A stretch of 64,000 nt of DNA from Rhodospirillaceae bacterium (GTDB lineage: Bacteria > Pseudomonadota > Alphaproteobacteria > Bin65). The notes beneath the pieces were generated by a model that searched no databases, was not told the origin of the DNA, and was given only the letters and a program-made list of their open reading frames with translations. This document shows, piece by piece, positions 1 through 34,140 of the stretch. The position numbers and the translations under genes were made by a program. The DNA lies in NCBI GenBank assembly GCA_028819475.1, contig JAPPLJ010000033.1, forward strand, positions 1 to 64,000, written 5' to 3'. How positions within the stretch are numbered: the stretch's first letter is position 1; every line of letters begins with the position of its first letter.

Positions 1-115
1 CGGACAGGTTGAGAATCCCCTTTCGCAGAGAAATCCTCTGAAGAGGGGGAAGGATGAGTTTGCGGCGGCCTGGCCCTTTTCGCAGAGGAAACAACGTTGG
101 GGACGCCCTCCGGGA
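1..115. repeat. Dispersed palindromic repeat fragment
   Basis: This stretch downstream of the corC-like gene holds the palindromic core CCTCTGAAGAGGGGGAAGG and two copies of a CCTTTCGCAGAGGAA-like word. The same words recur near 7.35-7.58 kb, and the core recurs near 30.4-30.6 kb. No coding potential is convincing here. The window edge cuts the element, so its full extent is unknown. Confidence 0.6.
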
Positions 116-7279: not shown

Positions 7280-7381
7280 GACGCGCTGCCAGGCGAAACG
7301 GCGTGAGTAACCAAGGACGCAGGCGCGTCCCCCCTCCCCTTGGGATTCCTCTGCGAAAGGGCGAGGCGTCGCAACCTTGTC

Positions 7382-7510
7382 CTTCCCCCTCTTCAGAGGG
7401 GGAAGTGACCGAGCGCAGCGAGGTCGATGGGGGTGTCCGCTCGCCGGTAGGGCCGTGCCGGGCGCCACGGCACCCCCACCTGACCTCCCCCTCTGAAGAG
7501 GGGGAGGAAT
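7382..7510. repeat. BIME-like composite palindromic element
   Basis: The element has two different ends, each built on the palindrome CCCCCTCTTCAGAGGGGG. The left end (7382-7435) continues into GACCGAGCGCAGCGAGGTCG and GATGGGGGTG. The right end (7471-7510) is CACCCCCACCTGACC followed by the palindrome. The same two ends occur in the opposite orientation at 30418-30563 with an unrelated spacer. Short words like CCTTTCGCAGAGGAA flank it (about 7346-7361 and 7541-7556). The whole 7280-7585 gap is non-coding. Confidence 0.8.
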
Positions 7511-7585
7511 AGGAAAGCGACCGTTGGCGGATACTTGCGGCCTTTCGCAGAGGAACCCTCAAGAGAAGGGGATTCGGTCAGTGCC

Positions 7586-30417: not shown

Positions 30418-30563
30418 TCCTCCCCCTCTTCAGAGGGGGAGGCCAGGTGGGGGTGGCGCGTCGCCAGACGCGCAGCGCCGCAAGGCGCTTCTTGCAGATT
30501 CGACACGGCACCCCCATCGACCTCGCTACGCTCGGCCACTTCCCCCTCTGAAGAGGGGGAAGA
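30418..30563. repeat. BIME-like composite element between glcD and glcE
   Basis: The left end is TCCCCCTCTTCAGAGGGGGA followed by GGCCAGGTGGGGGTG. The right end is CACCCCCATCGACCTCGC, then GGCCAC and the same palindrome. This is the reverse-complement order of the ends at 7382-7510, with a different spacer (containing GCGCGTCGCCAGACGCGC, itself a hairpin). No gene is seen in the 30357-30641 gap. Confidence 0.8.
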
Positions 30564-33984: not shown

Positions 33985-34140
33985 ACAGACCGGGGCCACC
34001 CCGGTCCCTGAGCGCAGCGAAGGAGAATGGGGGCGCCGTTCAAAGCCGAAGCGTGGCGCCTCGCGGTGCTGCGCGTCTTGCGACGCGCCACCCCCATCCC
34101 GATTCAAGTTCGGGTCTCGCCCTCGGAAGAGCGGGAGGTA
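33985..34140. repeat. Degenerate palindromic repeat between convergent genes
   Basis: Words related to the 7.4-kb and 30.5-kb elements are seen here: CTGAGCGCAGCGAAGGAG, GAATGGGGGCGC, GCGCGTCTTGCGACGCGCCACCCCCATC and CTCGGAAGAGCGGGAGG. The arrangement suggests an older copy. No coding sequence is evident between 33916 and 34146. Confidence 0.55.

What the first reader, a model, noticed from the sequence alone, without database searches (positions are those of the whole stretch)
7382..7510. BIME-like element with two unlike ends, present in both orientations
The ends at 7382-7435 and 7471-7510 recur in reversed order at 30418-30563 with different spacers. That is the architecture of bacterial interspersed mosaic elements, which are mobilised by RAYT transposases. 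A RAYT gene is not seen in the window.
Basis: partly seen in the sequence, partly recalled or inferred. Interest (0 to 1): 0.5.

Follow-up and report, generated by a model that had tools for sequence, protein, structure and literature searches.

The report
Gene-less partner of a nuclease element
A short repeated DNA element in an uncultured relative of the Rhodospirillaceae looks like the gene-less form of a widespread small element whose only gene is a DUF559 (homing-endonuclease-like) nuclease, which points to a partner for such repeats other than the known RAYT transposases.

Summary
Two unlike ends, each a perfect hairpin with a G-rich inner arm, flank a variable spacer at 7382-7507 and, inverted, at 30419-30562. 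The 4.48-Mb draft genome has 49 such hairpins (reversed pattern: 0) and 24 two-ended copies.

The RAYT reading fails. The genome's one RAYT carries its own GTAG-type REPs; the two congeners with most hairpins have no RAYT hit; across 50 families RAYT presence does not predict the hairpins.

DUF559 (PF04480) does. All 6 DUF559 genes found in the genus (2 independent sites) have hairpins of this or a sister family on both sides. Of 79 DUF559 loci from many phyla, 58 have hairpins on both sides within 200 bp, against 3 of 55 neighbouring ORFs and 1 of 395 random places. In 137 families, 3 or more hairpins occur in 33 of 35 with a strong DUF559 hit and 7 of 102 without.

So the window element is best read as the gene-less form of a DUF559 element. 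Mobilisation by the nuclease is inferred, not shown, and no DUF559 was found in the window's own genome.

The parts
7382..7405 (+). A-end hairpin CTTCCCCCTCTTCAGAGGGGGAAG (copy 1)
   Evidence: most of its columns are invariant in 16 aligned copies
7406..7435 (+). A-end inner arm ending in GGGGGTG
   Evidence: the same hairpin and arm stand beside DUF559 in L206
7436..7470 (.). variable spacer (35 bp), the slot that holds the DUF559 gene in gene-bearing elements
   Evidence: variable columns; for the DUF559 loci
7471..7483 (-). B-end inner arm CACCCCCACCTGA
7484..7507 (-). B-end hairpin CCTCCCCCTCTGAAGAGGGGGAGG (copy 1)
7343..7358 (+). outer inverted repeat GGATTCCTCTGCGAAA, shared with insertion sequences of this genome
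7543..7558 (-). outer inverted repeat, right arm (1 mismatch)
7330..7342 (+). half hairpin of the sister family (CCCCCTCCCCTTG); a sister-family element stands at this place in G001
30419..30442 (+). B-end hairpin of copy 2 (element inverted)
30443..30455 (+). B-end inner arm of copy 2 (CCAGGTGGGGGTG)
30456..30508 (.). spacer of copy 2 (53 bp)
30509..30538 (-). A-end inner arm of copy 2
30539..30562 (-). A-end hairpin of copy 2
34010..34140 (+). decayed third copy, oriented as copy 1 (34010-34096 about 80% identical to part of copy 2; degenerate B hairpin at 34118-34135)
1..36 (-). right end of a multi-copy insertion sequence at the start of the contig; inserted in a hairpin of this family
37..49 (.). 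half hairpin (TCTGAAGAGGGGG) left beside the insertion sequence

Best explanation
The element is the non-autonomous (gene-less, 'spacer') form of a palindrome-ended element whose full form carries one gene, a DUF559 nuclease. DUF559 is linked in print to the EDxHD homing endonucleases and to Vsr-like nucleases. Each end is a C/G-rich hairpin followed on the inside by a G-rich arm; the two ends are inverted, and the slot between them holds either a DUF559 gene or a short spacer. SHOWN: the shared end architecture; the flanking of DUF559 genes by such ends in many phyla; the co-occurrence of DUF559 with many hairpin copies; presence/absence of copies between species. INFERRED: the DUF559 protein recognises the hairpin ends (or target half-sites such as CCTCCCCCTC) and cuts, and the element is copied into the break by recombination/repair in a homing-like way, in cis for gene-bearing copies and in trans for gene-less ones. 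In the window's species the nuclease gene appears lost, so its copies would now be fossils, used as landing sites by an insertion sequence.
For: (1) Genus: 6 of 6 DUF559 genes in 7 genomes have hairpins on both sides, 3 with the window's hairpin and 3 with the sister hairpin CCCCTCCCC..GGGGAGGGG; these are 2 independent sites, each in three species. (2) 79 DUF559 loci from many phyla (80 fetched; L224 dropped for a short flank): perfect stem of 8 or more within 200 bp on both sides in 58 of 79, against 1 of 395 random same-geometry places and 3 of 55 neighbouring ORFs; at least one side 72 of 79, against 41 of 395 and 14 of 55. The C-Y-T-C-Y-C-C arm signature on both sides: 30 of 79 against 0 of 55. 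(3) 28 class-level loci: both sides 12 of 28 against 2 of 320; at least one side 26 of 28 against 41 of 320. (4) Orientation: in the 114 ends where a C-rich hairpin lay within 250 bp (of 160 sides), G minus C is positive on the gene side in 102 and on the outer side in 43. (5) One genome per family, 137 families: 3 or more hairpins in 33 of 35 with a DUF559 hit of E 1e-20 or better and 7 of 102 without (p 1.7e-22); counting every DUF559 hit (E 0.001), 35 of 49 against 5 of 88; all 289 genomes, strong hits, 60 of 67 against 24 of 222. Among families of 2.5 Mb or more, 28 of 28 against 4 of 40. (6) In one complete genome (G022) 8 of 9 fetched DUF559 loci (of 10 hits) have hairpins on both sides, mostly each with its own variant; exact copies of four of these variants occur 15, 14, 10 and 31 times in a 0.8-Mb sample of that genome, the other seven strings tested 0 to 2 times. 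(7) The site with DUF559 in G001, G002 and G004 is a solo end in the window's genome. (8) The DUF559 profile matches 3hrl (endonuclease-like protein, E 1e-38) and weakly 3r3p (mobile intron protein, E 0.0077); PMC9403480 (passages) places a DUF559 gene in the EDxHD homing family.
Against: The window's genome has no DUF559 hit (0 of 9 candidates), so activity here would be past, or the gene is missing from the draft. Only 2 independent DUF559 sites in the genus, and extra ends are present at both. Exceptions: 21 of 79 DUF559 loci do not have hairpins on both sides and 7 of 79 have them on neither, among these both Legionella loci; of 20 loci fetched from genomes with long contigs (one of them, L295, already in the set of 28) 11 had both sides and 4 neither; 2 of 35 DUF559+ families lack the hairpin pattern, and 7 of 102 without a strong hit have it (two of these, G015 and G026, have a weak hit). 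With weak hits counted, 14 of 49 DUF559+ families lack the pattern. The pattern covers only part of the hairpin sequence space, and in G066 (208 copies) the reversed control also rings 64 times (leaving G066 out changes little). Nothing shows that DUF559 moves the element; it could be a passenger. The DUF559 loci are the best scorers by protein similarity, not a random draw, and some are close relatives.
Confidence: 0.66

Rival explanations
1. DUF559 is a passenger: a free-standing homing-type nuclease gene that settles in the spacer of pre-existing palindromic elements, which spread by some other means.
For: The gene sits in the spacer slot, which such invasion would also give; DUF559 is placed in a homing endonuclease family in print; 7 of 102 families without a strong DUF559 hit have hairpins.
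Against: Many hairpins are nearly confined to genomes that hold DUF559 (33 of 35 against 7 of 102); in G022 the DUF559 genes mostly have their own hairpin variant, alike on both sides.
Confidence: 0.22
2. It is a miniature inverted-repeat element (MITE) of the insertion sequence with ends GGATTYCTCTGCRAAA, moved by that DDE transposase.
For: 10 of 24 two-ended copies have the outer repeat (up to 3 mismatches) on both sides; contig C9 holds an IS-like unit with this repeat and a broken DDE transposase whose intact part is above a Pfam DDE cut-off and resembles IS5 models below their cut-offs; the composite at L023 is absent as a unit from G001.
Against: 7 of 24 two-ended copies, including 30419-30562, have no outer repeat and 7 have it on one side only. 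The IS inserts INTO the hairpins: 13 of 15 contig-end junctions read lie in this family's hairpin and 2 in the sister's, with 8-bp duplications where sides could be paired (TCTGAAGA; CTCCCCTT), so the hairpins are its targets. DUF559 loci in other phyla have hairpin ends of the same kind.
Confidence: 0.08
3. A classical BIME moved by a RAYT.
For: Layout; one RAYT in the genome.
Against: The RAYT has its own GTAG-type REPs; no Y1_Tnp hit in G001 and G002; no association in 50 families (p = 1.0); no CCTCYCCC-type hairpin in the 12 other Y1_Tnp loci read.
Confidence: 0.03

Closest known systems
REP / BIME with RAYT (REPtron)
   Same: Short hairpins in inverted pairs, gene-less copies in excess, a single small DNA-processing gene flanked by the same hairpins in the full form.
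   Different: Partner is a DUF559 nuclease, not a Y1 HUH transposase; hairpins have C-rich/G-rich arms with a G-rich inner arm and no GTAG tag at the foot.
CGTC-tagged REPs of Alphaproteobacteria (Di Nocera et al. 2013, PMC3733652; outline and sections 6 and 16 read)
   Same: Inverted pairs, mostly in Alphaproteobacteria, without an associated transposase.
   Different: The text describes stems that almost always begin with complementary A/T residues and mostly CCA tails; the window hairpin does not fit this description. Figure 2 itself was not seen.
EDxHD homing endonucleases (I-Bth0305I; Vsr-like)
   Same: A DUF559 gene is placed in this family in PMC9403480 (passage); the DUF559 profile matches 3r3p weakly (E 0.0077).
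   Different: The member described (I-Bth0305I; PMC3943268, passages) is a phage-type intron endonuclease; here the gene sits between hairpin ends of a dispersed repeat.
MITEs / IS5-like insertion sequence of this genome
   Same: Outer repeat on part of the copies.
   Different: Hairpins are targets of the IS; no clear duplication found at gene-less copies.

Membership tests
BIME/REP with RAYT | Inverted, unlike hairpin units, many copies, both orientations | tested here: met
BIME/REP with RAYT | Cognate RAYT flanked by the same hairpins | tested here: not met
BIME/REP with RAYT | GTAG tag at the hairpin foot | tested here: not met
   no GTAG at the foot of either hairpin; the RAYT's own palindromes do have it
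CGTC REP | CGTC-type tag, A/T first stem positions, CCA tail | tested here: inconclusive
   text; figure not seen
MITE of the GGATTYCTCTGCRAAA insertion sequence | Same terminal inverted repeats on all copies | tested here: not met
   both sides 10 of 24, one side 7, none 7
MITE of the GGATTYCTCTGCRAAA insertion sequence | Target site duplication | tested here: inconclusive
   no clear duplication at the 4 distinct presence/absence loci seen
DUF559-associated palindromic element (proposed here) | Same hairpin and inner arm flank a DUF559 gene in close relatives | tested here: met
DUF559-associated palindromic element (proposed here) | Movement depends on DUF559 | not testable with these tools
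   needs an assay

The most novel reading that the evidence does not exclude
DUF559 nucleases and C/G-rich hairpin pairs form a bacteria-wide class of minimal mobile elements that spread by nuclease-driven (homing-like) copying rather than by a transposase, and account for many of the hitherto partnerless palindromic repeats of bacterial genomes.
Probability: 0.42. Interest if true: 0.92.

Novelty: new variant of a known kind. Interest (0 to 1): 0.8.

Why it matters
Bacterial genomes carry palindromic repeats with no known mover; [quoted passage not shown] A single small nuclease gene found between hairpins of one kind in many phyla gives such repeats a candidate partner and makes the question testable with one protein and a marked element. 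It would also give a role to a large family still called a domain of unknown function.

Tried and rejected
RAYT partner: rejected. Rfam: 0 matches at gathering score in the window. Plain MITE of the IS: rejected for the core, because many copies lack the outer repeat and the IS uses the hairpins as targets. Reading the 'inverted' flanks of some composites as IS duplications was tried; two contig-end pairs gave 8-bp direct duplications (TCTGAAGA, CTCCCCTT), one pair (C47 end with C53 start) differs at the two central bases. A full copy of the multi-copy IS was not found in the DNA then held. Presence/absence comparisons gave 4 distinct loci, none with a clear duplication; at L148/L200 the empty allele keeps one CCTCCCCCTC half-site, which fits loss as well as gain. 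GIY-YIG nucleases as another small nuclease: hairpins of 8 or more on both sides in 2 of 21. The permuted-arm controls in G022 include permutations equal to the original arm, and for the CCTCCCCC arm they average 19.6 against 37, so they are weak. PADLOC: weak matches of DUF559 members to DpdF (13 of 26) and three others, not pursued. Hits of the DUF559 profile to toxin B chains (E 0.3 or worse) are taken as chance. Literature: ten searches. 14 papers were listed for DUF559 and 4 for COG2852. Of the 14 I read passages of PMC12907096, PMC12308824, PMC9403480 and PMC9927313 (the last is a match to DUF5590); the other 10 I saw only as listings. None of what I saw pairs DUF559 with palindromic repeats. 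In PMC12308824 (passages) a repeated segment with a transposase and DUF559 is a mutation and recombination hotspot in Legionella. Passages of PMC12306157, PMC5082802 and PMC3943268 were also read. Only open-licence papers were searchable; Taylor et al. 2011 was not held.

Full report
What is in the window. Copy 1 is at 7382-7507 and copy 2, inverted, at 30419-30562. End A is CTTCCCCCTCTTCAGAGGGGGAAG followed by an inner arm that ends in GGGGGTG; end B is CCTCCCCCTCTGAAGAGGGGGAGG preceded by CACCCCCACC. Spacers differ (35 and 53 bp). Folded as DNA, copy 1 is far more stable than its shuffles (z -5.97). 49 hairpins (up to 1 mismatch) occur in the 4.48-Mb draft against 0 for the reversed pattern. 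24 two-ended copies were counted in the 34 stretches I cut out, 10 in one orientation and 14 in the other; the rest are single or run off contigs. Copy 1 has outer inverted repeats at 7343-7358 and 7543-7558; over the 24 copies 10 have these on both sides, 7 on one side and 7 on neither, copy 2 among the last.

Distribution. Exact hairpins: 42, 59, 44, 10, 22, 5 and 0 in the seven genus genomes G000-G006, 7 in one of the four other family members, 0 in the three others and in the remaining 50 of 61 genomes.

Not a RAYT system. The one Y1_Tnp gene is bracketed by GTAG...CTAC palindromes, and no CCTCYCCC-type hairpin lies within the 9 kb read. G001 and G002 have no Y1_Tnp hit. In the 50 families scanned for both, 3 or more hairpins occur in 4 of 12 with and 11 of 38 without a RAYT (p = 1.0), against 9 of 9 with and 6 of 41 without a strong DUF559 hit (p = 2e-6).

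The DUF559 link. An orthologous site in G001 holds a DUF559 gene between element ends where the window's genome has a solo end. All six DUF559 genes found in the genus have hairpins on both sides, of the window's family (3) or of a sister family (3). They are two independent sites, each shared by three species, and both carry extra ends. At class level 93 of 289 genomes have a DUF559 hit. In the 28 new loci fetched, perfect stems of 8 or more stand within 200 bp on both sides in 12, against 2 of 320 controls, and on at least one side in 26, against 41 of 320 (controls are other places of the same loci and of 12 Y1_Tnp loci). Of 79 with enough flank, 58 have both sides and 72 at least one; random same-geometry controls give 1 and 41 of 395, neighbouring ORFs 3 and 14 of 55. 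In the 114 sides where a C-rich hairpin lay within 250 bp (of 160), the gene side is G-rich in 102 and the outer side in 43: the gene occupies the spacer slot. Of 20 loci from genomes with long contigs (19 of them new), 11 have both sides and 16 at least one. In G022, exact copies of four hairpin variants that flank DUF559 genes recur 15, 14, 10 and 31 times in 0.8 Mb, the other seven strings tested 0 to 2 times.

Co-occurrence. With one genome per family (137 families; 152 further genomes left out), 3 or more hairpins occur in 33 of 35 genomes with a DUF559 hit of E 1e-20 or better and in 7 of 102 without (p 1.7e-22). Counting every hit to E 0.001 gives 35 of 49 against 5 of 88 (p 4e-16); over all 289 genomes strong hits give 60 of 67 against 24 of 222. 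At 2.5 Mb or more it is 28 of 28 against 4 of 40, so genome size alone does not explain it. The genomes are related, so these p-values are not exact.

The protein. 18 alignment columns are invariant, including E15, D57 and H61 (first-sequence numbering). The profile finds 3hrl (endonuclease-like protein, E 1e-38) and, weakly, 3r3p (mobile intron protein, E 0.0077). PMC9403480 (passages) states that a DUF559 gene belongs to the EDxHD homing family; PMC3943268 (passages) describes I-Bth0305I of that family as dimerising on an exceptionally long target; [quoted passage not shown] That 3r3p is I-Bth0305I is recalled, not from a call.

Mechanism. Presence/absence comparisons gave four distinct loci: L023; L148/L200; L147/L027; and copy 2 of the window. 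None shows a clear duplication. At L148/L200 the empty allele keeps one CCTCCCCCTC half-site where the filled allele has two. Copy 1's place holds the sister-family element in G001 and a core without outer repeats in G002; at another place the window's genome has a sister-family element and G001 the window's family (L061/L058). Such switching at one place fits break-and-copy events better than simple transposition, but deletion and recombination between repeats could also give it. My reading is therefore homing-like copying driven by DUF559. The association is shown; the mechanism is inferred.

The insertion sequence. A multi-copy IS with ends GGATTYCTCTGCRAAA stops many contigs, this window's contig start among them. 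Of 15 contig-end junctions read, 13 lie in the window family's hairpin and 2 in the sister's. Where the two sides can be paired, an 8-bp duplication is seen (TCTGAAGA, with the intact hairpin in G001; and CTCCCCTT); a third pair differs at its two central bases. The hairpins thus serve as landing sites, as reported for REPs (Tobes and Pareja 2006, seen only as a reference in PMC5082802).

Novelty. Ten paper searches gave no paper that pairs DUF559 with palindromic repeats, as far as listings and the passages read show; only open-licence papers could be searched. The layout is of a known kind (REP with its gene), the partner is new as far as I could see, hence 'new variant of a known kind'. The limits are stated under evidence against.

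Noticed in passing
L310 (G001:C40), L319 (G003:C3), L322 (G004:C10): 3 of 21 GIY-YIG matches in the genus lie between copies of another repeat (GTCATTTCGACCGG / GGAGAAATC motifs on both sides), a possible second pairing of a small nuclease with a dispersed repeat.
   Followed up: partly
window 1-49; contig ends C15, C16, C21, C25, C27, C30, C34, C43, C47, C53, C60, C65: A multi-copy insertion sequence uses the element hairpins as target, with 8-bp duplications at two of the three places where sides could be paired.
   Followed up: partly
L016 1207-1848 (G000:C50): The RAYT reading frame runs through its own GTAG-type REPs at both ends, giving FVGEGFKPSPTA near the N-terminus and FVGEGLKPSPTA near the C-terminus.
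   Followed up: no
L049, L050, L051 (G000:C32, C2, C21): A repeated unit of about 0.6-0.9 kb between outer inverted repeats of the GGATTYCTCTGCGAAA type; copies of its interior also in G001. Gene content not worked out.
   Followed up: no
window 7330-7571 against G001 and G002: The same intergenic place holds three different elements in three species (window family nested in outer repeats; sister family; core without outer repeats).
   Followed up: yes
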